From contig NBIV01000330.1 of the NCBI GenBank assembly GCA_003194525.1, positions 1 through 60,866 of the forward strand: 60,866 nt of DNA. The letters run 5' to 3'. Positions within the stretch are counted from its first letter, which is position 1. Every line of letters starts with the position of its first letter. This DNA is from Gracilariopsis chorda. Lineage: Eukaryota > Rhodophyta > Florideophyceae > Gracilariales > Gracilariaceae. The notes beneath the pieces are model-generated. The model did not search any database. It was not told the origin of the DNA and saw nothing but the letters and a program-made list of their open reading frames with translations. Below, piece by piece: positions 1 through 58,860 of this stretch. A program made the position numbers and the translations under genes.

Positions 1-191
1 GTTCAACGTGGTTTGCACAGCCTTCAGGATATAATCATTCGCTTCAGCGAATACCGTTTGGCCAGGGCGGGAGTCATTTGCCCTCTTGTGTCATAAGGAG
101 CTCCTAAGTCCGGTAGGTCAACGATGTACGGCGCAGGTGCATGTAGGAGGGTGAGGTCAAAGAGAGTTTTACCGGTGGACTTATGCACTTG
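1..191 (-). mobile_element. Ty3/gypsy element A, 3' part of integrase (split)
   Basis: On the minus strand this stretch encodes the region after the integrase catalytic core of a Ty3/gypsy polyprotein. It aligns residue by residue with element B near 59,800-59,950, sharing the pattern VHK.T....FDLT...AP.PY.VDL..LGAP with MTPA.AKRYS.KR. It is the direct continuation of the integrase that stops at 13,798; the 13.6 kb between is an inserted DNA transposon. The rest of element A (C-terminus, 3' LTR) lies left of the window. Element A is decayed, so this is not an active gene. Confidence 0.85.
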
Positions 192-215
192 CGTATGTGT
201 TCTCGGAACGCTAGT
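192..215 (+). repeat. Left terminal inverted repeat of the 13.6-kb transposon
   Basis: It matches the reverse complement of 13,774-13,797 at 21 of 24 positions (differences at positions 4, 11 and 18). It starts CGTA and ends in GCTAGT, the motif repeated through the subterminal region. The preceding TG is the target duplication. Confidence 0.85.
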
Positions 216-432
216 ATTTGGGGCTAGTTTGGTCTGATTGAAATATGTCGTCCAAAAGTTCTGCAGAAAATGACGGATCGCGAATGCAAAGGTAATTTTC
301 GTTAATTTTTTAGAGTGCAAGCTAGTTTTCGCATTCGATTCTAGCACAGAGTCTTCCATATTATGAATGCAAAACGAACGCAAAAGACGTCGCTAGTTTA
401 CCGTGGAGTTTTGTATGTCATTCGCTAGATGT
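200..432. repeat. Left subterminal repeats (GCTAGT / CTAG and GAATG motifs)
   Basis: About six CTAG-centred motifs (mostly GCTAGT or CTAGCAC) occur in some 230 bp, interspersed with GAATGC/GCATTC motifs. The right end has the same vocabulary at higher density. In CACTA elements such subterminal arrays are bound by an element-encoded protein. That role is inferred here. Confidence 0.7.
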
Positions 433-542
433 GAATAACGGGTCTGGAGCTTAAGAACCGCTCTTACCAAACCCATATCACGACGACACCCATCAAAACC
501 ACTCTCCACCGAGAGGCGGCTGCGTCTCCGTCTCCGAGAACG

Positions 543-1362
543 TTATTTGAAGAAGTCGTCCGGTACGCTCTCCTCCTTCTCCTTCTTCACTCTCTTCCCC
601 CAACGTCCACAACGCCTCTTCTCATCAACCTCACCAACCACCTCCCACCTCCTCTTGGGCTGATCACCCAAGATTCTCTCTGCCCCCCGCGCCTCTCCTA
701 CACTCCTAAGCGCACGAGTCCCCTTCCTAGCGCCCTTCTTCGCCTCTTTCCCTCCACCCACTCCACGCTTACCGCATCTCTTCAAGTCCCCTCTCACTAT
801 CGGCCTCTTCTCCCCAACCCTCCCCTTGCACACCTCCCCCTCGCTCTCCGCAGTCTCGGCCACAAACCGTACCCCCTCCTTCTCGACTTCCCCATCAAAG
901 TCCCGTCTCCAGGTCCAAAGTTTATCCCATCGCCATTCACATACCTAAAACCACCCGTCATCTTACCATTCGGCGTCACAGTCATGGGTGAGCCGCGCCG
1001 TCCACCACGACTCTCCCCAACTCCACCTCCCTCCTTCACCAACTTCTTCACCTCCCGTAGCCGCGTCTGAAACCTTTCCTGCTCCTCCCTCAACCCTCCC
1101 ACCTCTCGAACCACAAAGGCTGCAATCTTCTTCCCCATCCCACGCAAATCCCTCTCACCTCCTTCCCCACCTCCCTCACCATCGCCCTAGAACACAACGC
1201 AAGCACTCCCTCCAACCCTTCCTCCTCCGCTTCCTCCTGTTCCCGCTTCTTCCGCATCCCCAAAGCCACGGATTCCTCAATCTCCGCAAGGAACTGTCCC
1301 CAGCTGCGCGATCCGCGGCCACTCGTCATCTCAAACACAACACAGCTCAAAGAAAGCGGCAA
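543..1362 (-). pseudogene. Basic/coiled-coil ORF of the transposon, two frameshifts
   Basis: Three overlapping minus-strand reading frames (1362-1090, 1147-797, 863-543) give one coherent highly charged protein if two frame changes are allowed near 1,160 and 900. The N-terminal third is Glu/Arg-rich and coiled-coil-like (RKKREQEEAEEE, then REEQERFQTRLREVKKLVKE). The C-terminal third is Lys/Arg-rich with KRGVGGGKEAKKGARKGTR and ends KKEKEESVPDDFFK. I recognise no family. The plus-strand ORF over the same bases (988-1650) is Ser/Pro/Leu-rich and looks like its antisense shadow. Very short introns could replace one of the frame changes, but I see no good splice pair. A nuclear or DNA-associated role is only a guess from composition. 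Confidence 0.45.
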
Positions 1363-1885
1363 GGATCAAAAGAAGCGGTAGAGATCGAAATAAGTGGAAA
1401 GTCCCCGGTGAGAACCTCACGCGCCAGCCGCTCCCGCGCATTCACTTCCCCGCCATTTTACCCCCTTCCAAAAACCCCCATACACTGTATTTCAAAATAC
1501 CTAGCACTTTCCGCTGTTACTTTCATTTCTACCCCACCCAATAACCTCTCTCATATCGTCACCCCCTCTACCCCCAGATGTACCCCTTCAATGCCCAATA
1601 AACTCATATTCTTTACCTCTACCGCCATCCCACAGCCCCCATTTACGTAAACCTCATTATTCTCTTCTTCAATAACCCTTTCCCCCTTTTCCGCGCACAT
1701 TCTGGACCTCTTATACCAATTCTACCAGAAAAGTGTTTCTCATCTCCTTCGTCCTCACTTCTCAATATTTTGCATTGAATATGAAACAGAAACGCGTTCA
1801 AAAACGCATAGAACAACCGTTTGGTCTTGCCTTTAATCTTCCTTCATCTAGTCGCCATCATCTAGTTCAATAAAGCTATTCTGTT
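1363..1885. other. Pyrimidine-rich spacer inside the transposon
   Basis: The plus strand is strongly C/T-rich and low in complexity. I see no convincing gene. It may hold the promoter of the minus-strand ORF ending at 543 and, at its right edge, that of the following plus-strand region. Confidence 0.4.
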
Positions 1886-1889
1886 GCAT

Positions 1890-1896
1890 ATAAAAT
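1890..1896 (+). promoter_or_regulatory. TATA-like box followed by pyrimidine leader
   Basis: ATATAAAAT at about 1,889-1,897 is followed by a C/T-rich tract (CTCTCTCTCCCG) and by ATG codons at 1,972 and 2,019. This is a plausible core promoter for the region 1,972-3,030. It is motif-based only. Confidence 0.35.
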
Positions 1897-1971
1897 CAGA
1901 CACACCTGCCCGTTCCTCTCTCTCTCCCGTTCTTCATCAACAGTTCCGCCCTTGAGCTAGCACCTCTAAAC

Positions 1972-3030
1972 ATGTTGTTCGAGAACTTTCGCTCCCAACA
2001 ATACGTCTTCCTCCACAATGACGTTCGAGCAACTCTCACGTTCGACATTCTCCACAACAAAAGCTACTTCGTTTCAAACAATTGCTTGAAGCTAGAGTAC
2101 TGCAGGGACACAAACAAGTCATATCTTTCAGGCGCAGCAATCCATTATAAGTGATGAGTTGAAAGCCGAAATGACCAACATTGACCAACTCCTGCGCGAC
2201 AACCCCTCTGACCCCCGGTTCTTGCAAAATCAACCTTCTACTACAAGACCCCCCATACCTTTGACACATATCCAACTACATTCGTTCCTCTGAATCCCTT
2301 TCGAACAATCCATTCCATATGGCAAGTCTTCTTTCTCTACTAATTTCACCTCCCTCCTCTCCTTCGCCATCGAACTCTCTACGGTGTTTTGAAACCAGTG
2401 GTCACCAAATTCCTTCTATCCGGCCATTCCTCCTGTGAAGCGGAGACTGGATATACCATACTGTACAGTATCATCGATACAGTACTCCATATCTTGTTGT
2501 TCGACTTTGCAATCTCCCTTCACAAGGAGTTTGTTCGGCCCCCTCTCTTTCTGCCCAATGAACCCCATTCAACATTATGGCAGACTGGGCACCATCAGCG
2601 CAAGATTCGCAGGATTTGCAATAGCTGGACTCCTCGCCCTGAACGCGAACATACTCGCCGCCTACGAACTGCTACAACGCCAGCTTCCCTAAGGTGTTCC
2701 ATACGGAACGCCTCCATCGCGTTCTTTCCCGGTGGGTTCTTTTTCGCCCTAACAGTCTACTTTGTCGACAGATTGGCCGTGTACGCCCTCACAGGCCACC
2801 CGTTCAAACAACAGAGTCCTTCTCCATATTCGCCACACTATCTATCCAACATCATACAAATTTTTACGTCAACGGCCTGGAAGTCTCTTCGAAGAGCATT
2901 GTTCCTGGACGACATCGTAGTCTCCATTCGCACCTTTTTCGTCGAGTTGTGCCCGTCTCCTTCGCGCACTTCACTTCGTAGTCCATCCAACCTTCTGCCT
3001 TTTCAACCCACAGAGGTTTCCCTCCACTAG
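1972..3030 (+). pseudogene. Possible broken or multi-exon gene with membrane segments
   Basis: Several plus-strand frames contain protein-like stretches but no single frame is open throughout. One (2,132-2,293) reads AQQSIISDELKAEM and on, preceded by an acceptor-like TTTCAG. Another (from 2,560) encodes FAGFAIAGLLALNANILAA, a likely membrane helix. A third (2,710-3,030) encodes FFPGGFFFALTVYFVDRLAVYALTG, a second likely helix. A TATA-like box precedes it. Either a short-intron gene or a decayed small membrane protein would fit. I could not build a consistent splice model and recognise no family. Confidence 0.25.
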
Positions 3031-3678
3031 TGAATAACACTTTATTCATTCTTCTCCTCGTCTGCTCCAGCGCTATAGACTACGAAATCAAATATAGATT
3101 CAAGCGATATATTGCAGCTATCGGAACAAACCCCAGACCCCCAACCTCTCGGGTCCTTCCGTACGAATAACTTCTAGAACAACAGACCAACAATACAGAT
3201 TACCTTCGTTGTCGTAGCCCCTTCATCTTCTATCTTCCGCATTCCCTTCCAGTCGGCGTCTTTGCACAGCTGTTAAGATTTAGGATATGTGAGCTACATA
3301 CTATGCTTCTCTTCTATACCCCATTGTAGAGTTTTTTCTTATAACTATACCACTTTTTAATGTACGCGAGTGAGTTCATTGTACGTTTTACAAAGCGAGT
3401 GAGCTTGAAGTAAGATATGCAATGCCAAGGTTCTCCTTGTAGACGACTCCATACACGGTAGGAATTATATTTGGTTCATTCTGATTCAGAAAAACAGTTA
3501 GACGCATATTGTAGTATTAAAATATCAAGCTGCGCACGTGAAAAGCTGTTTAGATGTCGCGGAAGTACGGTTTTAGTAGAAAATTGGAGACCGAAATATT
3601 TGAGGACGGGTTAGCGTCGATACTAAATATCTCGCGTACTATATCGCGGCTTTGTTCAGAGCTTAAGCTATTTTCCCG
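3031..3678. other. AT-rich spacer inside the transposon
   Basis: No ORF of note. There is a degenerate internal duplication around 3,365-3,420 (GCGAGTGAGTTCATT and GCGAGTGAGCTTGAAG). It may contain the promoter of the ORF at 3,679. Confidence 0.35.
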
Positions 3679-4341
3679 ATGTCGATTGGGTACATTAGAG
3701 ATGAAGAACTGCTCACTCTTTTGAATCACAGGGAAGTCCCCGAAACGCCGCCCAGAGATAAAGCAGATGGGTATGAGGGAACAGAACAGAAGAAGAAGAC
3801 TGTTGGGATAGGAGAGCTGGGAGTTGGAGTAATGGCTGCGAATGGAGGAGGAGATGCAGGTGGTGGACCGGAGCACACATTCAGAAAGGATATGAAGGCC
3901 CGGGTTAAGGCTTTAAGTGCCTCGTTGAAGGAGAGTTTGTATACTTGTATGACAGATGTAGTGTTTGAGTATGTTGGCCTGTCTTGGAGCGTTTCTGATG
4001 GTGGGATTCCACTGGACGTGGTTACTATTGTTCGAAATCGGATGAAAATGGCAGGGGTCTTGATGAGGGATCATGTGGAAGGGATCGTGGAGTGCTTGGT
4101 GAGGGAAATAGGAGCAGTTTATCGAAAGAACAATGCTCTAGAAGACAGAGTGACTGTCCTTGAAATACAGCTTAGAGAGGCCGTTGATATTCAGGTGCAC
4201 TTGAAAAACAGAGTAAACGGAGCACAAAACGGGGCCGGTGGAGCAGGCGGTGCTCATAGAAGCTGCCTAGGGACGAGGAAAATAATGGAAGACAAAATTG
4301 AAGATGTGGAGCGAGGTACTCTCTTGAAGAAGAAACGTTGA
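3679..4341 (+). CDS. Unrecognised 220-aa transposon ORF with C-terminal coiled coil
   Basis: A single open frame from ATG to TGA. Residues about 60-75 are Gly-rich. Residues about 75-150 include a helical stretch (FRKDMKARVKALSASLKES, then MTDVVFEYVGLSWSVSDGG). Residues about 150-185 read as a coiled coil (RKNNALEDRVTVLEIQLREAV). The tail is Lys/Glu-rich and ends KKKR, possibly a nuclear signal. Size, charge and coiled coil resemble accessory DNA-binding proteins of large DNA transposons in a general way, but no domain is recognisable and no function is assigned. It lies upstream of and on the same strand as the methyltransferase gene. Confidence 0.55.
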   Translation: MSIGYIRDEELLTLLNHREVPETPPRDKADGYEGTEQKKKTVGIGELGVGVMAANGGGDAGGGPEHTFRKDMKARVKALSASLKESLYTCMTDVVFEYVGLSWSVSDGGIPLDVVTIVRNRMKMAGVLMRDHVEGIVECLVREIGAVYRKNNALEDRVTVLEIQLREAVDIQVHLKNRVNGAQNGAGGAGGAHRSCLGTRKIMEDKIEDVERGTLLKKKR

Positions 4342-4692
4342 CAGGTTAAGACATATGTTTCTGATGAAGAAAGAAAAGGACGACTCCTAGATCTTATGTG
4401 CATCATGATATAAATGAGACAATGCTTTATTTACGGCGGTACTAGAATGTATCTGTCATCGCTAATTATCTTCTTCCATATCCTCATCTCCCTTCTCACC
4501 CTCCTCTTCAGTATAAATGGCGTCGTCCGCATTATCATTTCCATCTTCATTAAGGTGGCACGAAGAAGTGGATTCGGTGAGTTCGCTCACAGGTCTTTGT
4601 GGAGGAAGCATTCTGGTCGCCCTTTCCACCTCTTCTCTAACCCCCTTCCTGCCACGCGTCAACGCTTCATTGCTTGCACCGACCCCCAGGCC
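4342..4692. other. Spacer after the 220-aa ORF
   Basis: No convincing coding sequence. Two overlapping ORFs of about 80-100 codons on opposite strands look like chance frames. Confidence 0.35.
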
Positions 4693-4841
4693 GGCGCAGC
4701 TGCGCCGGGTGGTCGGTCTTGACATTGTCGGTCGACAAAAGAACGACCCCCCGTAATTTAATCAAAAATCAACATTCTGGTGTCCGTGCTTGACATTGCC
4801 GACCGACAATGTCAAGACCATCTACCCGGCGCAGCTGCGCC
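4693..4841. repeat. 149-bp foldback (MITE-like) with palindromic ends
   Basis: The palindrome GGCGCAGCTGCGCC occurs at 4,693-4,706 and again at 4,828-4,841. Inside, the arms continue as an inverted repeat: GGTCTTGACATTGTCGGTCG on the left, its complement at 4,800-4,819 on the right. Arms of about 44 bp flank a centre of about 60 bp. It has no coding capacity and looks like a small nonautonomous foldback insertion or a structured regulatory element. Confidence 0.65.
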
Positions 4842-5211
4842 GTTAGACCGACAACCTGAACTGTGAGAACTGCGACGAATTCTCGAAGTTTCACCTTCTC
4901 CGTCTGTTCTGCAGTGCCCAACTCCCTCATTCAAAACAAAACCCTCCGAAGTTTCCCTCCCTGCTCCATTACACACTTCGAAATCAAATCTATTTGAAGT
5001 TCGACGGACGTGAATCATCAGAACGGGCGTCTTCGTTCCTCGGTTGCCACGAAGCATCTCCTTCGCAACCATTCAAACTCGAACGCAATCTTTCGTGCAT
5101 CTGTGCATCTCCCGCCGAAATTCCACCCATGTCGTTCCCCTCCACTAAACAGGGAGTAACTCAGGTGCACCCGTGATAGGGCATAGGGCTCCTGCGCACC
5201 CGCCCTCAGAC
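4842..5211 (+). other. Region upstream of the methyltransferase gene
   Basis: An open frame at 4,994-5,176 overlaps the start region of the methyltransferase gene in another frame (ending SFPSTKQGVTQVHP) and could be 5' coding sequence lost by a frameshift. A stop (TAA) at 5,146-5,148 lies in the methyltransferase frame. No clear TATA box was seen. Confidence 0.3.
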
Positions 5212-8200
5212 ATGAGCATTTCGGAAAGCTTCATAACCATCTGGAATGTGTTTATGTCCGTCCGTGATGCGTACGCGGAATCGAGAGGCTCCGGGGTCCC
5301 TAAACGCGATGTCACATTCGAGAAGATTGTAGAGTTTATGCTACAGAATCGTCGAGCGAATTCAGAAGTGCTCGGATTGTTGGAAAGATTCCTTGGTTCC
5401 TCCCACACCTCCTACAGCGACAAAGAGGTCACTGCTTATCTTTGCACCTCTGTACAGGGTCCGACGCAGTACTTCCGACAGGTTTATCGATATGTGGCAT
5501 TGTTCGATGAACAAGACGGGTCGAAAGACAGGCGTGTACGGGACTTTTACGAGTGGACCATTGACGGGAGGGGCGGAGGTGGAACAGGGATGGTACAAAG
5601 GGTGTTCAACAATGACATCTTCAAGAGGTATTTTCACGGAGCCGCTACGGGGAAGGGAAGGGGAACGTTTAGGACCGTTCCTGCTACTCGATTCCAACAG
5701 CTGCTGTACCTGTCGGTGGTAAAGCACATCGAGATTGAACGCACGGGTCGGGAACGGAAGCGACGCCTTGGACACGGAAAGAAGGTGAAGGCAGTGAAGT
5801 ACGTGGAAAGTTTCACCATATCTAATCACATGCACGGTCAGCGTATGGCGTACGGCGTACAGCACGTATGAAGGGCTTGGGACGCGTTCGATGTCGTTCT
5901 GGGTTTCAGAGACTGCGAGCAGATGATGCTTCCTTATCTCCTTATCAACAGAGACACTTTTAAGCTCTCTGATATTCACTCCCGAACGATTGGTTACAGC
6001 CCCAAAAACGCCGCGTACAAGCTGGGACAAGAAATGAAGCCGACGGTATCCGAGGACAGTGTTGTTACCTGGGCTATTGCTTTTTCGGATGACGTAGACT
6101 GCAATATGCGTATTCTGGCCAGAGAATTGGTCTCGGATCTTCGGCGTATTGTACTGGACAAGAAGATGTATGAGCTGAGTGAAACCGAGCAATGGCCAGT
6201 GCTATCTACTTTTACGCGAAGCAGCACGAACCCACCGGTTCGATTTGACTCCTTGTCCGAAGATATTGTCAAATCAGTGAAGGAAGCTTGTCCAAAGCAT
6301 AATGTTCAACCCAGCAAAGCTTGGTCGCGCCCTATGGATGTACATTCCAAACTATCCGCCGCTCCTGGAACCAAGAGCCACACGAAGAGCGTGCAGGCCG
6401 TTGGAAAGCAGCTCCGTGAGAGCTCCAATGGCTCCGGACAGACGAATGGGAGCGGTAGTAGCAGTGATGACGTAATTACCACGCCTACTGCTCCCGCTTC
6501 TGCGGAGATACAGGCAACGGTGGACGTTTCGGTGAACATCCTCCCTCCTCATGGGACGCTGGGGCCTGTGACTGCGAAGGCTACGAAGATTCTGGAGTCC
6601 GTGATGGAGAAGAACTTTGCGTTCTACTGCGTGGACTCCGAAGAGCTGGTGTACGTTCATGAAAATGTTCCGGGAGGCACCATATCTCCGAGGGGGAGAG
6701 TTCAACTCTCTATATCTGACGCGCCGTATCAAATTCGGGATACCGAATACGATCGCATCGGTCACCAGAAGATGGTTTCGTTTGCCTATCACAACTCGGA
6801 TTGCCTGCGTCCTGTTGGACACTTGTTCGTCTTCTGTTCAGGTTTTCAGTTCCCGATATGGTACAAGATTTTGACCGACTGCCAATACGTTGATGCAGAA
6901 GGGAGGATGAAGAAGTCTTTCACCGTGGATAAGACGTCCCTGTTGTGTTTGCGCCATCGCTCAAACCCGATGGCGTTCCCTGGTCGCAACAACATTAGCT
7001 TGTTCCCCGCACGGGAGCAGGTATTGCATGCGGTTCGGAATGGCATTCCCTATGCGGAGCAGAAGACAATGGTGAACTACCGTAAGTTCAACCATGTTGC
7101 CAGCCGATACCCTGGACATGTCGGAGTAATCGATCAGGTTCCCCATCGTGCCCCAGGAGAGAGACTGTACTGGAAGGTGCGGGATGGGCAACGATTTGTA
7201 AATCGTCAGATTCGCCCGGAGCAGAAGTCGAGACAGTTGATGAAAGAGCTCATAGCACGTTTTTCTCAACCTGGAGACCTTGTGATGGATTTCTTCTCAG
7301 GAACGTTTACCACAGCACTCGCGTGCATGGAACTTGTTCCGCACAGAAAGCTCATCGGCGGTGAGAATTATCGTAATTGTTTCATACATGCGAAGCATAA
7401 CGGTATAGTGCTTATGGGAAAGGTAATTGCCGACAATTCCCTCAAAGTCGGTGACTTGGAGTGTGATGAACGCATCGGTACGAATGCTGTTGTACAGGCG
7501 GCACTTCATGTGGCCATGGCGTATGAAGAGCAGATGAAGGAGGCGGAAGAGAAATTGTTGCCGAAAGATGAAAGGGGAGATCCGATCTTATGTGCGTGGA
7601 GGTTGTCTGGTTTAGACAGAATATGTTTCTCTGGTTATGACGTGAGTTCGAGAAAGTATGGAGAAGAACTAGATGACTTGTACTTCAAGAACGAATTGCG
7701 TGTGGAGGTGTTGAGGGAATTTATGGGGTACGACGCGGAGCGACCGTGCAGGGAACGGGAGACGAGCTATGTAGATGGAAGTGTGATGCATTTGGCGCGA
7801 TTGGATGCGTGGATTGCTTCTGTGGTAGAGGCATTGAAAGAAGATGTGGGGAGAGGAGGGAAGCGGCAAATGCTGTTTTCGAAATTGTATGCAAAGTATC
7901 TCCCGCTTGCTGTGGAGGATATCCTACTGACTGCGAGAAGGAAGATCGAAGGGAAGTACGGGAAGGAGCTTGTGAACTATGGTGTGAAAGCTGAAGATCC
8001 GACTGAAGTGGAAGGGAATGAGGAACGTGAGGGGACCGTTGCGTGTTGGATGCCGTCGAACCAACTGGTGTATCTGGGTGTCCCGTACGAGGTGTTTTTG
8101 GATGAAATGACTACGTACCTTGGTAATGTATTTGATTGCTACGTAGGCCGTTGCATGCCTGAAGAACGGGAATTTAAGGAGTTGGTAGCCGTTGAGGAAG

Positions 8201-8283
8201 AAATTTTGGACCCCAGAGAGGAAGGGGAAGGGAAGGAAGACGGAGAGGACGGTGGGCGTGGAGAAGAGATGGCGGAGGAATGA
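5212..8283 (+). CDS. Large protein with beta-class N6-adenine/N4-cytosine DNA methyltransferase domain; one in-frame TGA
   Basis: One frame runs 1,023 codons from ATG 5,212 to TGA 8,283, broken only by TGA at 5,869-5,871. After the stop it continues with protein-like WDAFDVVLGFRDCEQMML. The stop may be a C-to-T change of CGA, or lie in a tiny intron (60 nt, GTACGG...TTTCAG, or 57 nt ending at 5,922). Two methyltransferase motifs are visible. Motif IV is SISDAPYQIRD (6,706-6,738), a DAPY variant of the usual D/S-PPY. Motif I is VMDFFSGTFTTALAC (7,282-7,326), preceded by RPEQKSRQLMKELI and followed by IGGENYRN. The order IV then I is that of beta-class amino-methyltransferases (PF01555 type), which use S-adenosylmethionine to methylate exocyclic amino groups in DNA. 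The N-terminal 500 residues are unrecognised, with a Ser/Gly linker near residue 405. The C-terminus is acidic. It converges with the transposase. Target base and activity are inferred. Confidence 0.8.
5869..5871 (+). other. In-frame TGA in the methyltransferase gene
   Basis: TGA follows CAC GTA and precedes AGG GCT TGG in a frame otherwise open from 5,149 to 8,283. A CGA-to-TGA transition is the simplest cause. Splicing of a 57- or 60-nt intron would also remove it without changing frame. Confidence 0.85.
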
Positions 8284-8336
8284 GAAGTTTAAGAAGTTTA
8301 TTGCTAGAGTTAGCGGGTCTGTGTTTCTAAATTTGA

Positions 8337-11300
8337 TTACCTTGCGGTAGAATAAGCTCTTGCTCGTGGGTTGCGGAAGAATCTGTTCATATAGAACCGA
8401 TGTTGTTGCAATGGAAGGGGCGGAAAGAAAGGTCGTGCTGGGTAGTTCTGGCGAACAAGATGCACGGAGCTTTTGATGGCGGAGAAAGGAACAAGACCGA
8501 ACCAAGGTGCGGCATTGGGGCTAGGATTCGAGGTTCCGTGAAGAGCGGGGAGAATAGTATGGTCATGTTCATCGTCTGTCGCCCAACGGAGGGTAATGCA
8601 GTTAAGAGTTTCATCCACGTGATCAAGAAGATCTGTGAGTTCGAAGAAGCATATTCGCGTTCACCTGGCTCATCGTCTTTTATGCGGAAGCGGAGAAGGG
8701 CAAGAAGCTTACATACCCAAACCGTGGGGAACTTGCAGTTGGGTGGTAGAGTGCTTGAGACGAGAATATGAGAGAACTTTGGAAGTTTTGAAGGACCGAA
8801 GCTGGTGGTGGCAAAGATGCGCTGGAGAACAAAGGCCGATGGTTCTCTGAACCGGATGCATTTGAACGTTCTGTCGACGTCTTGCAAGGAAGGGGTGAAA
8901 CCACTGCGGATGAAGGCGGAGTTGACGACGGAGAAGTTGAGAGAAGAGAGGGAGGGTGAAGAAGGGGAAAGTCCAAGCGCTTCGAGGCATAGATTGTGAA
9001 ACGGTGAGATTGCGTCTCGTGAGATTTGGGTGATGAACGGTGGAGGTGGAAGAGGTGAAGATTTTTGAGAGAGAGGCATTGGAGCAGTTTGGGTTCGCCC
9101 GAAGGTACTTTTCTGCGGTGATTATATCCCGAAAGAGAATGGTGGTACCGTCGCGAACCATGGAATGTCTTCGAGCTGGGAGTGTGTGGGAGTTTGAGGA
9201 GGAGGAAAGGTGGTGGGGGATTGCAGTTGAGTTTCGAAAGCCTTCTGTGAGTTGAATTGCGTCGATTGTTTCTCTGTGAGTGGTTGAAGATCTTCGGGAT
9301 GTGCGCCGATAATGGTTTTTGAAGAGTAGTTGTGCGTGTTCGTAGATGCCAGCGTCAGTGAAGTGGAGACCTCCGTATAGTTTGATGTGGGCGACGATGT
9401 GATCGAGAAGGTGGAATTTGAGCGTTCTGAAGTGAGAAGCCTGGAAAGGGCCGAGGATGGAGACGCAGAGATGCTTGAAGTGCTTGATGAGTTCTTGGAG
9501 GGAACGAAGTTGTTGGTGTGTCCATTCTGAGGTGGTGTTGTAGTGGAGTGCGGTAGTGAAGAGGTCGGCGTATGTCATGAACATGGATGTGATGGGTGCT
9601 GTGTCAACTTCGTTGCAGCAAAGATCGAAGAAGGCGCCTACGAAGGGAAACACCATGTCGACTGCGCGGTAATCTTTTGCCTCGAGCATGCCTTTGATGC
9701 CGTCCGGGGTGAAGAAGCCGTTGAGGGATTTGCCCTTCTCTGCGGTGGAAAAGTCAATGTGAAGTGCCGGTGCGGAGAAGTTGACTTCGATATCTGCGAG
9801 GATGTTGTTTGCATGGGTGACAAGGGTGCTTCGAATGGATTTGAATGATCTCGAGGAGGAGCCAACAGTGGTGAAGATATTGTCGGACTTCAGGCGTTCG
9901 ATGGTTGCGAGTTTGACGAGTTTGGAGATACCGAGGTGGAAATTGTGAAGGGGTTCGAAGGAGAAGATGGAGTATGTGGTGAGCAGTGGGGAAATGTTTA
10001 GGAGGGGGTAAGATTCGAAGAAGGAGTGGTAGGGGGAGAGGGCGTTTGTGTGCAGGAGAGATGCTGCTTGATCTCTGAGAGTCCTGGCGACGCGCGGTCT
10101 GCGTTGTAGTTCGGTGTTATTTGCATCCTTGAGAAGGGCGTCGTGTGAGGACCTTGTTTGGAGGGTGTGGGAAGCGGTTCGAGGGGTTAGGGAGCTGAGG
10201 TGGAGGCTGAGGTCGGAGCGGGGGACGAGGCATCTATGGCAGGGCTTCAACGGTTTTGTGCCGTGGAGGACAGCGAGGATGTCTCTCGCTTCGGGGATGT
10301 CTGCAGCATAGTTTGCGATGACTGGGTGGCACTGCCGGATGATCTGGTCTTCATCCCGGAAAGGAAATCCTTTGAGTGCAACAGCTGCGAGGGGCTCGAG
10401 GATGGTTTGCAGAGCTTCTTGAATGAGTTCCATTCGGGTGGTACGGGTGATGGTGGAGGAAAGTGAGCGGTCTTCGAGGGAATCCTCGTCGGATGGGGAG
10501 GAAAGGGCTTGGAAGGACGTGGGGATGTAGCCAAGTAGGGTGTAATTACGGGATATGCAATGGCGGCGAAAGGAGTATGAAAAGTTGAGGAGGGTGATGT
10601 GAAGGGGGTAGGAGGTGATAGAGGAGTTCTTGAGCGAGGTGGAAGACTTGTCTGAGTAAAGCTGTACGAAGCCCATGAAAGATTCAATGCCAGTGATGTT
10701 GGAGTTGTGCCAAATAACATCTGGGTCTTCAGAATGCAGGATGTGGTGCTTGAGGTCCTTGTAGACGCATGTACCGAGTTTCGAAGCCATGGGGTGAGCG
10801 TGTGCGGGGGTACCGTCTGACGCGGACTTTCTTACTGGTTGGAAGAAGGTGCTTGCGCGAGAAGCGTAGCGGAGTTGTTTGAGGAGGACATCGACGGGGT
10901 TTTTCAGGTAGAGAGTTGCGGTTATTTTCGAGGGCTTGTGACGAATAGTTCTGGATTCGGAGCCGATAGAGCCGACGGTGTCCTCAAAGAGCTTTGCATG
11001 GAGTTCAAGGCAGTGGGAGACGGACGTTATTTGTTGGCTGAGTGCCTGGGAGCAATCCGGGTCTTTGAGGAGGTTGATGAGTTCCTCTGCTTTGCGTTTG
11101 CCGAGCTTGGTGGCGATGGAAGCGATGTAGGAGACAATAGGGTGGAGGTTAGCAGGTGCGGGGGTGCTGGAAGCAGGTGTGGTGCGTGTGGAGGAGAGAG
11201 AGGAGTGGAGAAGGTGGACGGCGTCTGTGGAGCGAAGGGCTATAGTGAGCTGGCTGGAATGGTATTCATCGTCTTCCGCGAGCGGAACGTTGTCAGAGGG

Positions 11301-11504
11301 GCGGTTTGAGATGCGAACGGAGCGGGAGTCTGCGGTCTGAATGCGTGGTCGTTTGGTGCGGGGTGGGAGCTGGGTGCCGTTCTTGGGAGTGGTGGCGAAG
11401 AAGGGGTTGGGGGTGTGGCGGAAGCGACAACGGCGCTGGTGTTGGACAAGGGAGGCGTTGAGTTTTGTCTGGAAGGAGCACCTGTGTAAGCGACAAGGCT
11501 GCAT
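8337..11504 (-). CDS. Plavaka/CACTA-like transposase, probable two exons
   Basis: The long minus-strand frame begins best at ATG 11,504 (an open extension to 11,690 exists). Residues 4-26 form a possible C2HC zinc finger (C-x4-C-x12-H-x3-C), as at the N-terminus of fungal Plavaka proteins. Typical elements follow in order: LYSDKSS with a candidate catalytic Asp, a KPCHRCLVPRSDL zinc-binding motif, and a late block KFHLLDHIVAHIKLYGG...EHAQLLFKNHYRRTS. The frame appears to stop at 8,709, but a strong donor (GTATGTAAG, intron from 8,716) and acceptor (CTCACAG, to 8,633) define an 84-nt intron. Splicing restores DLLDHVDETLNCITLRW and a C-terminus with WFGLVPFSAIKSSVHLV and YMNRFFRN, as in this group. 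The spliced product is about 1,027 aa and may be intact. It is expected to cut and rejoin the element ends. Confidence 0.75.
8633..8716 (-). other. Probable 84-nt intron of the transposase
   Basis: Donor GTATGTAAG at 8,716 and acceptor CACAG at 8,633 on the minus strand. Splicing is in phase, creates the codon GAT at the junction, and removes the three in-frame stops that separate two protein-like segments in the same frame. A frameshift pair using the 9,079-8,387 frame is the alternative. Confidence 0.6.
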
Positions 11505-11989
11505 GGTGCAGAGGAGAAGGATGTAAGTCTGTGGGAGATGAGAAAGACGTGGGAGGCGTTCCGGGAGAATATATGACCGCTCAGGAGCACCAATCAGGTG
11601 GCATTGTGATGCACCAGAGAGGCGCGTCGCAGGCACGGCAGGCATGGCACGTGTGTGGACGGGAAAGTGGTTTGGAATGAAAACATTCAAAGTTGGTAAA
11701 TTTTTTAAGCGACGGCGAGGACTTGATTATTTCGCATGAAGAGGTTGGGAAGATGTGTAGACGAGGGTGTAGATCAGTGTGATCTTCGGAGCGTGCGATT
11801 TCCTGGACGCTGGATGTGGCGGAACGTCCCGCTCATGCTTGCAGGTTCGTGAAGTGCAATTGAGTACGTCTCGTTTTTTCGTGTGTTGACATGTGCTGAC
11901 TCTTGCTACGCTTTCTATGTTGATTCGGGAGAGGGAGCAACGGCAGTGTTTTGGATGAAGCTAGGGGCTTAAAAGACTGCGAGGAACAG
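11505..11989. promoter_or_regulatory. Upstream region of the transposase
   Basis: Contains the in-frame 5' extension of the transposase to 11,690, then non-coding sequence. No TATA box was found on the minus strand. It borders the tandem array and probably carries the transposase promoter. Confidence 0.35.
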
Positions 11990-13060
11990 GTGAGTTTGCT
12001 ATGCTGTTCACTTTTCAATCTGGACGAGGACCTGACATGTTTTCTTTCTTGATACGGAGCTATATTAATGACAAGAGGTGGATCGGGTGAGCAGAAGTGG
12101 TCGCTACAAGGTGAGTTAGACTGCGAATGTTATCTGGTAAGGACTACGCGCGGCGATCTGACAAGATTTTGTTGCTGTCGCGACGCTTTGTGGATGCGGT
12201 GATAAGTGAGAGCGAATGAATGGCGAGCATAGAGGTGAGTGCGGTTGTGTTTTAGTTTTGCTCTGTTTTTGGATGGAGATCTGACATGTTTCTGTGTGTT
12301 AGCGCGAAGGGAGAGGCATGAGGGAATGGGTGCGAAGAACTGGTTGCTGCAAGGTGAGTTTCATTTAGAATGCGTTCTGGGACTGGCTACTTACGGAGAT
12401 CTGACACGTTCTTGTTTATTGATGCGAAGCGAGCGAGATGGGAATTGGGTTCGAAGAAGTGTTAAGTGCTAATTTTATCTGGTATTGGCTATGTACGGAG
12501 AACTGACAAGATTGTGTTGCTCTTGTGACGCGTTGTGGACGCGGTGATAGGTGAGAGCGAGTGAATGGCGAGCATAGAGGTGAGTGCGGTTGTGTTTTAG
12601 TTTTGCTTCGTTTTTGGATGGAGATCTGACATGTTTCTGTGTGTAAGCGCGAAAGGAGAGGCATGAGGGAATGGGTGCGAAGAACTGGTTGCTACAAGGT
12701 GAGTTTCATTGAGAATGTTTTCTGGGACTGGCTACCTACAGAGATCTGACACGTTCTTGTTTATTGATGCGAAGCGAGCGAGATGGGAATTGGGTTCAAA
12801 GAAGTGGTGGTTGCAAGGTGAGGTTAAGTGCTAATGTTATCTGGTATTGGCTATGTACGGAGAACTGACAAGTTTTCGGTTTCTGCTGCGAAGCGTTGTG
12901 GATACCGTACTAGGTGATAAGGAGTGGGTGTTTTTCTTAGAGGTGAGGGCGGTGGCGAAGTTATTTTGGATTGTTTATTTGATGGAGATCTGACTTTTGT
13001 TTGTTTATTGATGCGAATGTGCGAGAGAGAAGTTGCAGATTGGATGAGGTTTGATGGTTT
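11990..13060 (+). repeat. Tandem array, ~120-bp unit with AG/GTGAG and CTGACA motifs
   Basis: CTGAC recurs at 12,032, 12,158, 12,281, 12,401, 12,503, 12,626, 12,746, 12,865 and 12,990 (spacing 102-126 bp). Each of the first eight is preceded by about 42-47 bp by AG/GTGAG, except the one at 12,503 where that part is deleted. A higher-order repeat of 345 bp is clear: the segment around 12,154-12,498 recurs at 12,499-12,843. On the plus strand each unit looks like a splice donor, a branch-point-like CTGAC and a T-rich tract. It may be an array of duplicated exon-intron pieces or of protein-binding sites upstream of the transposase. There is no CRISPR-like spacer structure. Confidence 0.8.
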
Positions 13061-13264
13061 CTAACGAGTGTTTGTTTGTGTTTGCTTATTTGTATCTTCT
13101 GCAGGTGCGAATGGGGAGGTCGAAGGGAGAAGGTGCAGCGAGGGGGATGAGCAGAGGTTTGGATGAGGTACGTGTGTTCAACACAAGTTGGGTTATTGGA
13201 GGCGTAGTGATGAAAGAAGGGAGCGCATTCTAACTTTTTTCTTTGTGGTTTCGTTTTGTGACGG
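13061..13264. other. Spacer between tandem array and foldback
   Basis: A good plus-strand acceptor-like sequence (TTGTATCTTCTGCAG/GTGCG, about 13,090-13,109) is followed by a purine-rich exon-like stretch with GTACGTG. No gene is recognised. Confidence 0.3.
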
Positions 13265-13414
13265 GTACAGGCCTCGCCTCACCGTCTATCGTGGAATGGA
13301 GGCCGTTTTTGTTACCGTTTTCGATTTGTTCTAGGCGCGCTACGCCTGGAGCAAAATGAAACGACAATGAAAGCGGTTTCCATTCCACGATAGAGGGTGA
13401 GGGGAGGCCTGTAC
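13265..13414. repeat. 150-bp foldback element
   Basis: The ends GTACAGGCCTC...CTATCGTGGAATGGA and their inverted counterpart at the right (TCCATTCCACGATAG...GAGGCCTGTAC) pair over about 60 bp with few mismatches around a short AT/GC centre. It is non-coding and MITE-like, and lies between the tandem array and the right subterminal repeats. Confidence 0.7.
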
Positions 13415-13564
13415 TGGCGTAGTATAGATTCAAGATTACATCCATTAGACGAGGTAAAAGTGAATGAGTACCGCATCCGAAACGTCCATGTCTGCTAGAT
13501 TTCATCGCCGATGGTGAATGATCTGGCACTAGATGACAAACATTCACCCCTTCACTGTTCGTAG

Positions 13565-13790
13565 TATTTGTGCTCTAGTATGAATGAGAACTGAACGATA
13601 GACTGCTAGTTTCTTACTGCTAGTATGAATGTTGCTAGTTTTCTCACATTCACCTCTGCATTCATTTGAGGTAGTATTTTGTGCTAGATATACTAGCACA
13701 AAAATTCTGAGATTTTTTTGAATGCCCACCATAGACTTTCTAGCACCCCCAAACTAGAAAAACTAGCACTCAAACTAGCATTCCGAAAAC
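13565..13790. repeat. Right subterminal repeats (CTAG-rich)
   Basis: About eleven CTAG motifs, mostly GCTAGT/ACTAGC, occur within some 220 bp, with GAATG/CATTC motifs between them. The vocabulary matches the left end. A small palindrome GTGCTAGATATACTAGCAC lies at about 13,681. Confidence 0.75.
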
Positions 13791-13797
13791 ACAGACG
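13774..13797 (-). repeat. Right terminal inverted repeat of the 13.6-kb transposon
   Basis: Reverse complement of the left end with three mismatches in 24. It is followed by TG (13,798-13,799), the target duplication, and then by the integrase of element A. Confidence 0.85.
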
Positions 13798-13799
13798 TG

Positions 13800-14649: not shown

Positions 14650-16250
14650 CTAATCCTTGGTGCATAAGATCGCTGCGCCGTGTCCGTCCGTCCCTTCGTT
14701 CATTCTCACCTCAGCCATCCGTGGTTCCCTTCCCTCCTCTTCAGTGTCCTGTGGCACATCCCAGATGGTGGGAGTCTCATCTTCCAATGGAGTTTGTTCT
14801 GTACCATCTGTCAGAATGCGTGGAAGGGCATCCGCGGCTTGATGTTTCAGCCCTGGCCTATAGGTTACATTATAGTCGAATTCGGCCAGGTGCACTCTCC
14901 ATCGGGCCAAACGAGAGGATGTGTCCGTCATGTTTAGTAACCACCGGAAGGAGTGGTGATCTTTCCTAATGGTAGAGTGAGCTCCTTCCATAAAATGCTG
15001 AAGATGGCGCACTAACCACACAATAACCAGAAAACCTTTTTCCGTTGTGCTGCAGCTCCTTTCGACCTTGGTCCGGGACCTACTCCAGTAGCCTTTTGGG
15101 CGATAATCCTTAAAGAATTCCTGCTCTTGGAAAAGAGCACAGCCTACATATGTCGCAGATGCATCCGTATCCAGGATATACGGCTTATTTGCCCTGGGTA
15201 GCCTCAGAATCGAAAGTTTAACCAAATTGTCTCTGAAGTTCTGACAGGCCTCATATTGCTGGTCCGTGAGGTCGTCAAATTCCGAAGGGGTCTTTTTCTT
15301 CACCATTTCATTGAGTGGCACCGCGGTTTTCGCGAACCCCAGGAAAAACCTACGGTACACAATGCATAGGCCAAGGACGGAACGCAGTTCCGTATGGGTT
15401 CTAGGGGGTCGCCTTTCCCGTATGGCCATAGTTGCAGCTTTAGCTATTTGTAGTTTTCCAGGAAACACCACATAGCCAAGGTAGTCCACTGAGGGCTGAA
15501 AGAAGAAACACTGCTTCAGCCTCAATGTTACGCCCGCCTGTTTTAGCACCATAAGGACTGCCATTAAATGTGCAAAATGTTCCCTAATGGATCTGGAGAA
15601 GATAATCACATGATTTAAGTAGACAAAGGCGAACTTCCATTTGACCCTGGACAGAATGATGTCCATGGCCCATTAAAAAGTGGCTGGCGCATTCATGAGA
15701 CCAAAGGGCATCCGTGTAAATCGGAATAATCCCAATTGGGTCGTGAATGTGGTTAGCGACTTCGCCTTGTCGTCTATGGGTACTTGCCAATACCCACACT
15801 TGGCATCCAGCGTGGTGAAGATTTGCGCATCCCCAGGGGAATCCAGACAGTCGTCCATTCGGGGGATAGGATAAGTATCCCTTTTGGTCACCGCATTTAG
15901 TTTGCGGTAATGAATACAAACCCGTACGGTCCAGTCCTTCTTGGCCACCAACACAAAAGGCCTAGCTCACTCGGCCTCCGAAGGTAGTGTACCCTCAATG
16001 AACCCTGGGGACTTCATTTTCTCAATCTCTTTGGCCACCACCTCTCTTCCTTTTAGGCCAGTTCGATATGAGTGTTGATATTGGGACGTGGCCCCGTCAT
16101 TAAGGTCAATTCGATGCTTTGTGGCATTGATTTTGCCCTGCTTGCCACCCCATGCCAGCGAAGCCCTTGAGGAGATCATTGAATTGTTCCCTATATGGTT
16201 CAAACTCCTCGCCCGGGTTGACGCCGTTTTTCCAAGTGGCCGGGGTATCA
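14650..16250 (-). pseudogene. Element A reverse transcriptase and RNase H
   Basis: Contains ARPFVLVAKKD...RVCIHYRKLNAVTKRD, PFGLMNAPATF, and RNase H ILDTDASATYVG with the late FRWLLNMTD...DYNVTYRPG. The polymerase catalytic YxDD is changed to YLNHV, so the enzyme could not work even if the stops were read through. Residue order and spacing are those of Ty3/gypsy. Confidence 0.85.
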
Positions 16251-35035: not shown

Positions 35036-36352
35036 TTACGGAAGTGATTCAGAGATGTGTCTTATGACATCTTCAACCCCTGTTTCAAACCTGGCAGACA
35101 CTGGGAATATATCTATTTGACACCCCAATTCGTCTAACAAGTCGTTGAGGTTCTCAACAACAGCTCCTCCTGAATCCATTTTATTTGCCACAATACATCT
35201 GCTTCTTTGTGACAGACCTGGTTCGTGCTTCTCCAACTCGTTTTGCAGAACGTTGAAAGCTTTAATCGCACTTCCTTCTTCGCCAGAGACATCCAGAACA
35301 TACACGAGAAATGCTGTCCGTTCGATGTGACGCAAAAACTCATGGCCGAGGCCTCGGTTGTCATGGGCGCCCTCAATGAGACCGGGAATGTCAGCCACGG
35401 TGAAAATGCGCTTATCTTGTAGTTTCCCATCAGCATTCACCACACCAATATGTGGCCTTAGAGTTGTAAATGGATATGACGCAACTTTTGGCTTGGCGCT
35501 AGATACAGCCCGCAAAAATGTGCTCTTCCCCGCGTTTGGTAACCCAACCAGGCCTACATCTGCAATGGTCTTCAGCTCTAGCTCCAGTCTCCTCCTCTGA
35601 CCCTGCTCTCCAGGATCTGCGGTGGTAGGCGATCTGTTCTGAGACGACTTGAATGCGACGTTACCACGCCCGCCACCCCCTCCTTGCGCTACTTCTGCCC
35701 GTTGTCCATTTCTGTTTAGCTCACAAACAAGAATACCACGTGGACTTAAGTGATCTTCCATTTTCATATCGGACATCTCCATCTCTAGCAAGCCTTCGAA
35801 CCCATTGCTTCCATTAATGGCATCTAATTCACGCACTACGGTTCCAGGTGGTACTCTTACTACGAGATCACTGCCGTTACGACCATGTCGCTTCGCTGAC
35901 ATTCCAGGCCGACCATTTTCCGCTTTCAAATTGTGCGAGGACATCCGCAATGATGTACATTCAGTTGAAGCTTCAAACCAAACCGAACCACCTCTACCAC
36001 CATGGCCTCCGTCTGGTGGTACAAGTTCTTGATTTGGGCCTTTAGAGAACGATGCACATCCTGGTCCGCCGCTACCGCCTTGTACCAAAACAGTTATTCT
36101 ATCGACGAAAGATCTTCTTCGATTTGGAACTGTTTTTGCATTTCGGTGAAGACATTTGACATAGCGGTGTGGATCTGAAATGCTTGAGGATAGCGTGAAA
36201 GATCGGCCATGGTATAAGGGCGTGCTCAAAAGTGATCTATCGGGCGTCTGTCTCAAAAAGCTGGACCAAAGTCCTATAGCCTTTAGACTGGGAAATGGAG
36301 AGCAATGCGTGCTAGCTCTGAAGTTGGCGATCCATTGGCGGAAGTATGCCAT
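35036..36352 (-). CDS. Obg-family GTPase, organellar (mitochondrial type)
   Basis: A 438-aa single-exon protein. Residues 1-80 are basic and Ser-rich, a likely organelle-targeting peptide. Residues about 81-260 are the glycine-rich Obg fold (DRITVLVQGGSGGPGCASF, PDGGHGGRGG, VAQGGGGGRGN). The G domain has G1 GLPNAGKS (270-277), switch region YPFTTLRP, G3 DIPG (321-324), G4 NKMD (390-393) and a G5-like PVSA. Obg proteins bind the large ribosomal subunit and act in its maturation. Eukaryotic versions work in mitochondria or plastids. No C-terminal Obg extension is present, as in GTPBP5/MTG2-type proteins. The choice of mitochondrion over plastid is not provable from sequence. Confidence 0.9.
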   Translation of the reverse strand: MAYFRQWIANFRASTHCSPFPSLKAIGLWSSFLRQTPDRSLLSTPLYHGRSFTLSSSISDPHRYVKCLHRNAKTVPNRRRSFVDRITVLVQGGSGGPGCASFSKGPNQELVPPDGGHGGRGGSVWFEASTECTSLRMSSHNLKAENGRPGMSAKRHGRNGSDLVVRVPPGTVVRELDAINGSNGFEGLLEMEMSDMKMEDHLSPRGILVCELNRNGQRAEVAQGGGGGRGNVAFKSSQNRSPTTADPGEQGQRRRLELELKTIADVGLVGLPNAGKSTFLRAVSSAKPKVASYPFTTLRPHIGVVNADGKLQDKRIFTVADIPGLIEGAHDNRGLGHEFLRHIERTAFLVYVLDVSGEEGSAIKAFNVLQNELEKHEPGLSQRSRCIVANKMDSGGAVVENLNDLLDELGCQIDIFPVSARFETGVEDVIRHISESLP

Positions 36353-39572: not shown

Positions 39573-41051
39573 TTAGCTGCTAAAGTCGAAAATCATGTTT
39601 CCAAACAGGCCCACAAGGCAAATCAACACGCCAAAGAATACGAATATGCCACCAATCACCAATCTCAGCGGGTCCCTATATTCAAAAGGCAACTCATTCT
39701 GGAATCGCACCATCAGTCTTCCAGGGAAGTAGAACATGATAAGGGCAATGCATCCACCGGCAAGAGTATTTGCGAGACCCAAGTCCGGTAGCGAAAGAGC
39801 AGCAATAGCCACAAACACGTTCAACACGCCTGCCAACAACAAACGCTTGGGGTCCTTGATCGACTCCGTCAATGACCCGAAGATCTTCTTCTCCAGTTTT
39901 TGGCGAAGCGGAATGATGAAAAGCGAGTACGTAATCAGCAGTAGACCGCCAATCGACCATGTAGCCACAAAACCGGCCAAAGATCCTTCCGGAAGCTTCT
40001 CTAGCACATTCGTTGTGATACCCTTACCGCTGTAAATCAAGTATCCCGCAATAGCCACCGGAAGGTAGCACCCGATCTGAATGCCAATGGTAGTGGCGTT
40101 CACAAGCGCCATACGCATACGTGTGGAATTCTGAAGCTCACACAGAGTTTCCGTGAGCACGTAATGGAAAGCATACACAAAGCAAATCATCGGCATCGAG
40201 TAGATGAGACCACCCAGATTGACCGACTCCCAAGTAGAGTCCTTGGGCGATTCCCACTCACCGTTCGTGAACAGCTGAAACACAAGCGCGGCCGCTTGCA
40301 AGTAGCAACCTCCTGCAGCGATGGCAGACGCCGGACCAAATGCCGCGAGACTTCCAACTAAAGTTACAGGGAAAAGCAATACAAGAGTCAACATAATGAG
40401 CACGTCACGGCCGAAGCACGCTGGAATCGGCAGCATTTTCTACAACCACAAACAGCACGGAGTTGAAACTCAAAGTTAGAACAAAAAGCTTATGCAATCA
40501 AAACCAAAAACAAGCAAACTGAACAACAGGTTGAATGGAAACGAATAACTTACCGGAAGCAGGTCAGCTAGTCCAACAATGTACGAGATGGCTGCCACAA
40601 TTAGAGCGATAGCGAGAAGAATTTCCGCGATAGTACCGTCAACCGGTCCGAAGTAATGTCTGATAATACCATCGTACGAGCTCTTGCCTACTCGAAGACC
40701 GGCATTAACAACGGCCTGAGCGGAGACGAACGCCATGATGGCAAAGATAACGATGAACTGTAAAGCTATGATTGGACCTGAAATCATCATAGCATACGGC
40801 AAGCTAAGCATAGAAGCACCCAATGCACATGCTGCCAAGTTCATAGCAGACGAAAAAACAGTACCAGTTGCTGGAGGTGCATCATCCGGAACTGGCCACG
40901 TCTTGTCTGAGACAAGGGTAGCGTTTCCGCTCTCAGCATCTCCAAGCAGCCTGGTTGCCTCTCCACTCGTCGGAATGGAGGAATACGATTCCGCGGCAAC
41001 GGCATCGCCAGAGGCATTGGGAATTGGAACACGATCAGTATTGTCAGTCAT
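39573..41051 (-). CDS. Amino-acid/auxin permease family transporter (SLC38-like), one intron
   Basis: Exon 1 is 41,051-40,554 and exon 2 is 40,439-39,573. The 114-nt intron has donor GTAAGT (40,553), an internal CTAAC branch-like site and acceptor TTGTAG (40,440). The spliced protein is about 454 aa. A hydrophilic N-terminus of about 60 residues is followed by the family signature SSAMNLAACALGASMLSLPYA and about eleven hydrophobic segments (for example FIVIFAIMAFVSAQAVVNAG, GGIFVFFGVLICLVGLFG). The AAAP family moves neutral amino acids with H+ or Na+ across plasma or vacuolar membranes; substrate is not predictable here. A polypyrimidine tract (minus-strand CCCTCCC runs) lies 20-50 bp before the ATG. 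Confidence 0.88.
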
Positions 41052-58800: not shown

Positions 58801-58860
58801 GAGATTCCCACCATCTAGGACGGACCACAGTACACTGATGAAGAAGGAGAGGAACCACCG

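What the first reader, a model, noticed from the sequence alone, without database searches (positions are those of the whole stretch)
192..13797. A large DNA transposon that pairs a Plavaka/CACTA-like transposase with a DNA methyltransferase
The element is complete (matched TIRs, 2-bp duplication, clean split of a retroelement). It carries a transposase and, convergent with it, a 1,000-residue protein with beta-class DNA amino-methyltransferase motifs. The KDZ transposons of fungi are associated with DNA-modifying TET/JBP enzymes, and CACTA transposition in plants is methylation-sensitive. An N6A/N4C-type methyltransferase as a component of such an element could mark or unmark the element's own CTAG-rich ends. 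I do not know of this combination being described for algae.
Basis: partly seen in the sequence, partly recalled or inferred. Interest (0 to 1): 0.92.

Follow-up and report, generated by a model that had tools for sequence, protein, structure and literature searches.

The report
Jumping gene carrying a chromatin-marking enzyme
This is a decayed copy of a large jumping gene in a eukaryote genome (possibly an alga); younger relatives in the same genome carry, beside the jumping enzyme, an intact protein that joins a bacterial-type DNA-methylating domain to a histone-methylating-type domain, which might help the element escape silencing.

Summary
The element at 192-13797 is real: matched inverted ends, a 2-bp duplication (TG), and a split Ty3 retroelement whose uninterrupted relatives match at 40 of 40 scored places. 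It carries a Plavaka transposase and, convergent with it, a beta-class DNA amino-methyltransferase (MTase). This copy is decayed: a stop in the MTase frame, a deletion of about 3 kb that fuses it to another gene, motif IV DAPY, a frameshifted transposase tail. Relatives show the full form: an MTase fused to a SET (lysine methyltransferase-like) domain, open over 1,060 aa with DPPY in a younger family with near-identical ends. Of 69 listed MTase loci, 31 lie within 12 kb of a listed transposase (about 1.4 expected), 31 of 31 convergent. The MTase domain differs between two families at dN/dS 0.19, like the transposase (0.18-0.20). Some TIR-bounded copies seem to lack it, so it is dispensable in cis. 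Best reading: a transposon-borne writer of DNA adenine and lysine methylation, probably against silencing. Activity and function are inferred.

The parts
192..13797 (.). Plavaka-type DNA transposon, family A copy (decayed)
   Evidence: TIRs, TG duplication, empty-site match in 40 of 40 scored Ty3 places
192..215 (+). left terminal inverted repeat
13774..13797 (-). right terminal inverted repeat
190..191 (.). target-site duplication TG, left copy
13798..13799 (.). target-site duplication TG, right copy
192..481 (.). left subterminal CTAG-rich stretch (6 CTAG in 290 bp)
13508..13797 (.). right subterminal CTAG-rich stretch (11 CTAG in 290 bp)
3679..4341 (+). ORF1, 220 aa, element gene of unknown function (only sub-threshold Pfam hits)
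   Evidence: 185 genome matches, not all listed: a close group at 74-100% and a distant one at about 29-58% identity; Pfam
5212..5868 (+). N-terminal part of the MTase-SET gene, ends at TGA 5869-5871
   Evidence: frame and homology to P0001
5872..7522 (+). MTase-SET gene, N6_N4_Mtase domain; motif IV DAPY 6718-6729, motif I 7273-7308; SET part deleted
   Evidence: PF01555 2.3e-12; copies that keep SET
7510..7522 (.). junction of a deletion of about 2,989 bp relative to C249, 13 bp shared
7510..8283 (+). 3' remainder of ORF3, fused in frame to the MTase by the deletion
8709..11690 (-). Plavaka transposase gene; Plavaka domain about 9921-10667; C-terminus frameshifted
   Evidence: PF18759 1.2e-21; alignment
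12021..13017 (.). direct repeats upstream of the transposase (345-bp tandem unit and shorter related units)

Best explanation
The window holds a decayed member (family A) of a multi-gene cut-and-paste transposon group with Plavaka-type transposases. Fuller elements carry four genes between short inverted ends: ORF1, an MTase-SET protein, ORF3 and a convergent transposase. The transposase moves the element and makes 2-bp duplications. MTase-SET joins a CcrM/MboII-like DNA amino-methylase to a SET domain in one chain, and most likely writes N6-methyladenine and a lysine methylation on element chromatin, so that the element stays expressed or available for transposition. Shown here: anatomy, copy number, recurrent linkage, domain identity by sequence and (for the MTase) fold, constraint on the MTase domain between two families, decay of this copy. 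Inferred: catalysis, adenine rather than cytosine, histone as SET substrate, anti-silencing role. My odds: element group with MTase-SET as a selected component about 0.9; anti-silencing or permissive-chromatin role about 0.45.
Confidence: 0.6

Rival explanations
1. The MTase-SET gene is a passenger: a host or foreign gene captured once by an ancestral element and carried without benefit to it.
For: Some complete copies seem to lack it; in family A it is decaying.
Against: Present in families whose proteins are only about 35% (MTase) and 49-52% (transposase) identical, in one convergent layout (31 of 31); dN/dS 0.19 between two families; frame open in 4 of 5 full-length family B rows.
Confidence: 0.15
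2. The DNA methylase controls transposition itself by methylating transposase-binding sites at the ends, as Dam does for IS10 or methylation does for Spm/CACTA (recalled comparisons); the SET part serves another step.
For: 17 CTAGs in the two 290-bp ends of the window element against about 0.9 expected from its interior; CTAG contains an adenine; the one family B end read still has 2-3 in its first 290 bp.
Against: CTAG richness is strongest in family A, whose motif IV is DAPY, and weaker in family B with the DPPY enzyme; SET is left unexplained. The other end of family B was not read.
Confidence: 0.2
3. In family A the protein is no longer a DNA methylase (motif IV DAPY) and worked, if at all, as a DNA- or chromatin-binding or SET-only factor.
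For: DAPY in 9 of 9 family A copies read (7 distinct sequences), against DPPY or DPPW in 7 of 7 homologues; ratio 0.57 against L023; SET sequence still readable in several family A copies.
Against: The effect of this change was not tested, and the motif may only record decay of one source copy.
Confidence: 0.15
4. The association is an artefact of assembly or contamination.
For: The assembly has 1,081 contigs; window contig C330 shares the element's left end and left flank with C1, so haplotigs or duplicates exist.
Against: The pair recurs on many contigs, five of them (C3, C12, C14, C27, C37) over 400 kb; the window also holds ordinary host-like genes.
Confidence: 0.02

Closest known systems
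Plavaka DNA transposons of fungi, including TET/JBP-carrying Plavaka (PMC12730594, passages and section 26 read)
   Same: Plavaka transposase domain; 2-bp target duplications as in PlavakaA; in some families an accessory DNA-modifying enzyme gene
   Different: Accessory enzyme is a DNA amino-MTase fused to SET, not a TET/JBP dioxygenase; termini CGTCTGTGTT..AACACAGACG, not TGT..ACA or CATCA..TGATG; host not shown to be a fungus
Bdelloid rotifer N4CMT (PMC8885841, passages read)
   Different: N4CMT is a host gene that methylates transposons, with SPPY and a chromodomain; here the gene lies on the transposon, with DPPY (family B) and SET
Plavaka-flanked giant repeats of Amoebidium (PMC11244446, passages read)
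   Same: Large Plavaka-associated multi-gene repeats
   Different: Cargo described in the passages is largely tyrosine recombinases; no MTase-SET mentioned there
EnSpm-Plavaka elements in the green alga Auxenochlorella (PMC12633428, one passage read)
   Same: Plavaka-type cut-and-paste transposons in an alga
   Different: No methyltransferase term in that text
DIRS and other retroelements with DNA methyltransferase genes (recalled, not checked)
   Same: Transposable element encoding a DNA methylase
   Different: Retroelements; no SET fusion recalled

Membership tests
Plavaka DNA transposons | Plavaka-type transposase domain (PF18759) | tested here: met
   E 1.2e-21, 77.7 bits against cut-off 26.3
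Plavaka DNA transposons | C(2)C and H(3-4)H motifs between second D and last E of the transposase | tested here: inconclusive
   CHRC and HNFH are in the window sequence and shared by most aligned relatives; spacing and catalytic residues were not assigned against a structure
Plavaka DNA transposons | 2-bp target-site duplication | tested here: met
   11 end pairs examined: clean in 4 (window TG, C228 AG, C98 GT, C320 TA); 2 with one altered terminal base (C28 AT, C125 TA); absent in 2 (C12, C3); undetermined in 2 (C105, C53); 1 dropped (C17, its two ends do not fit one element)
PlavakaA / PlavakaB | Termini TGT..ACA (A) or CATCA..TGATG (B) | tested here: not met
   Termini are CGTCTGTGTT.. 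(family A) and CGTCGGTGTT.. (family B)
Beta-class DNA amino-methyltransferase | N6_N4_Mtase fold, motif IV before motif I | tested here: met
Beta-class N6-adenine DNA methyltransferase | Catalytic motif IV DPPY | tested here: not met
   Window family DAPY in 9 of 9 copies read; family B and 6 of 7 homologues DPPY, 1 of 7 DPPW
Beta-class N6-adenine DNA methyltransferase | Adenine methylation activity | not testable with these tools
   No activity or modification data
SET-domain protein lysine methyltransferase | SET domain (PF00856) | tested here: met
   For the homologues: above cut-off in 5 of 7, below in P0001 and P0007; short profile hits to SETD8, EZH2, MLL. The window copy itself has lost it
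SET-domain protein lysine methyltransferase | Histone or protein lysine methylation | not testable with these tools
   No substrate data

The most novel reading that the evidence does not exclude
A DNA transposon that carries its own two-headed chromatin writer: one chain that puts N6-methyladenine on DNA and a permissive lysine mark on nucleosomes of the element, keeping copies expressed and mobile in a host without detectable C5 DNA methyltransferase. It would be a constructive counterpart to the TET/JBP erasers carried by fungal transposons.
Probability: 0.35. Interest if true: 0.93.

Novelty: new variant of a known kind. Interest (0 to 1): 0.8.

Why it matters
Fungal transposons are known to carry enzymes thought to erase DNA methylation. 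A mobile writer that joins DNA amino-methylation to a SET domain in one protein would be another way for transposons to manipulate host chromatin, and a route by which bacterial-type DNA methylases can spread in eukaryote genomes. Family B is young (near-identical transposases, open MTase-SET frames), so methylation on its copies can be tested directly by nanopore sequencing of the source organism.

Tried and rejected
CTAG ends as a general methylation target: not supported as general (2-3 CTAGs in the first 290 bp of the family B end read; the other end was not read). C17 as a target-duplication case: dropped, its ends do not fit one element. Prokaryotic origin of the fusion: the genome-contig scan gave 76 loci; the matched query residues lie within 499-795 and never reach SET. 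A viral carrier: one locus in viral contigs, L084, whose frames read by eye as phage-like with a small MTase. Protein database: window MTase 7 hits, candidates capped; P0001 found only itself; transposase 2 hits, candidates capped. The structural second looks list MTase chains only, so they say nothing about SET; both models are of middling quality (mean pLDDT 62.6 and 69.7). One search used three loci in the wrong orientation; one search is the corrected run. The 18S search for host identity did not complete. The Rfam scan of the window found nothing. No promoter, tRNA or composition scan and no tree were run. Prior description: searches listed no paper that, by title and abstract start, describes an MTase-SET on a transposon; of the listed papers only five were opened, by passages or one section. 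Most subscription papers are not held, and a 2016 review of adenine methylation in eukaryotes that I recall was not seen.
Full report
The window is contig C330 of an unnamed 91.3-Mb eukaryote-type assembly in 1,081 contigs. The element at 192-13797 has matched ends, CGTATGTGTTCTCGGAACGCTAGT on the left and CGTCTGTGTTTTCGGAATGCTAGT on the right strand, and a TG duplication. The flanks belong to a Ty3-type retroelement: an RT/RNase H frame lies at 14650-15666, and 350 bp of joined flank match uninterrupted in 40 of 40 scored places (157 candidates) at 84-89%. The TIR pattern with up to one mismatch occurs 164 times in the genome and never for the reversed control. The left 369 bp match 30 places and the right 383 bp 25. 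So the element is real and belongs to a populous group.

This copy is decayed. The MTase frame is cut by TGA at 5869-5871. Compared with contig C249 it has lost about 2,989 bp, with 13 bp shared at 7510-7522. The deletion removed the rest of the gene and fused the frame to a third gene, ORF3. The transposase C-terminus is frameshifted. Motif IV reads DAPY in 9 of 9 family A copies read (7 distinct sequences), where 6 of 7 homologues have DPPY and one DPPW. Family A copies differ from each other nearly neutrally (pooled pN/pS 0.82 over 34 of 36 pairs, two identical pairs left out).

Other copies show what was lost. In several family A copies the sequence continues into a SET domain, often with stops or frameshifts (for example YHDISQRP..YINDPRY..GEELFLRYGNDY). 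The same fusion is in the seven database homologues: Pfam SET is above cut-off in 5 of 7 and below it in P0001 and P0007. A profile of the seven hits adenine MTases over the first domain and, over short stretches of about 30-50 positions, SETD8, EZH2 and MLL SETs over the second. Foldseek of a second homologue model (P0004, mean pLDDT 69.7) against viral structures also reaches SET proteins at E about 2e-4 to 1e-3.

A younger relative, family B, carries the open form. P0001 matches five full-length rows of this genome at 94%, four of five without a stop. Three read copies have 1,060-aa frames and differ at 10 sites in each pair, mostly amino-acid changes, as expected of copies drifting after insertion. 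The family B transposase is 49-52% identical to the window's; 26 of 55 listed matches, the query included, are 98-100% identical and cover at least residues 1-765. Nine of nine read copies share one end, CGTCGGTGTTTTCGGAATGCTAGTTTG, with different flanks; one has a single change within it. This end is nearly the same as that of family A.

The link between the genes is not chance. I merged listed transposase places (23 of 51 rows, 53 of 55) and listed MTase places (26 of 67 rows, 43 of 45). Left out were ORF3 rows (residues 529-786), second fragments of one locus, and loci already in the other list. Of 69 MTase loci, 31 have a transposase within 12 kb; about 1.4 are expected; 31 of 31 are convergent. 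The other 38 had no listed partner; the tool scored only part of its candidates, so the true fraction is unknown. One TIR-bounded family B element, C27:206634-217801, holds all four genes; its MTase row is the compact form and its ORF3 has one stop. ORF1 lies on the MTase strand in family A (for example C12) and on the opposite strand in family B (C27, C53).

Selection. Between family B and a third family (C460, L163) the MTase domain has dN 0.168, dS 0.876, ratio 0.19, over 259 codons at 73% identity. The transposase of family A (L033) against four relatives gives 0.18-0.20. The MTase was thus held about as tightly as the transposase while these lineages diverged. Results on the other side: family A against L023 gives 0.57 for the MTase gene (346 codons), and window against L033 gives 0.53 for the transposase. 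SET was not tested separately.

Results against a strict need for the enzyme. Three TIR-bounded family B copies (on C14, C15, C23) have a transposase and no MTase in the capped lists or in the part fetched; the unread remainder beside ORF1 is about 1.3 kb or less, too short for the 3.2-kb gene. Fifteen listed copies start at residue 420, keeping the MTase domain but not the N-terminal region; 14 of 15 have no stop, but 11 of 15 end at residue 1014, before the conserved end of SET. So short derivatives multiply, and SET is not always kept.

Mechanism. Plavaka transposases resemble those of EnSpm/CACTA, and some fungal Plavaka elements carry TET/JBP enzymes thought to counter methylation-based silencing (PMC12730594, passages and one section read). 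Here no PF00145 C5 DNA methyltransferase was found in the assembly, while the control rang in 10 of 14 genomes (six-frame search, so introns or gaps may hide one). An anti-5mC role is therefore less likely. 6mA in protists accompanies H3K4me3 and permissive chromatin (PMC12695648, passages). A fused amino-methylase and SET could mark the element as open chromatin. This is inference. The alternative that the methylase acts on the ends fits the 17 CTAGs at family A's ends, but less well the 2-3 CTAGs in the family B end read.

Host. A single phycobilisome-type match above cut-off (28.1 bits against 22.2, C193) makes a red alga or another phycobilisome-related plastid bearer plausible. It is not shown.

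Novelty. Ten searches of the paper library (listed under Tried and rejected) listed no description of an MTase-SET on a transposon. I file it as a new variant of a known kind: a Plavaka-type element, with termini outside both Plavaka types described in PMC12730594, carrying an accessory enzyme that I have not found described.

Noticed in passing
window 1-500 and G000:C1:1345363-1345462: C1 carries the same left flank (50 bp read) and element left end as the window, with ORF1 100% identical in protein; probably a haplotig or recent duplicate, though its MTase hits are broken by many stops.
   Followed up: partly
window 4692-4842: A 47-bp inverted repeat (91% complementary) with a GCGCAGCTGCGC core between ORF1 and the MTase gene.
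   Followed up: no
window 13265-13414: A 56-bp inverted repeat (84%) near the right end, perhaps a small nested insertion.
   Followed up: no
G000:C3:355381 and C228:1455: Two element copies share the 50 bp of left flank read but have different right flanks, which suggests recombination between copies or a duplicated left side.
   Followed up: no
G000 whole assembly: No PF00145 C5 DNA methyltransferase match; suggests a host without 5mC machinery, subject to introns and incompleteness.
   Followed up: no
P0007 residues 1-110: The N-terminus of this homologue reads like a ParB-type domain by eye (no Pfam hit at 0.01), and phrog_67 is the best phage family for P0001 and P0003; a phage-type origin of the MTase is possible.
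   Followed up: no
window 57023-59601: Frames that read by eye as a second Ty3-type retroelement with RT and integrase-like parts.
   Followed up: no
window 35036-36349, 39573-40433, 41644-42954: Ordinary host-like genes: Obg-type GTPase, amino acid transporter, cyclophilin.
   Followed up: partly
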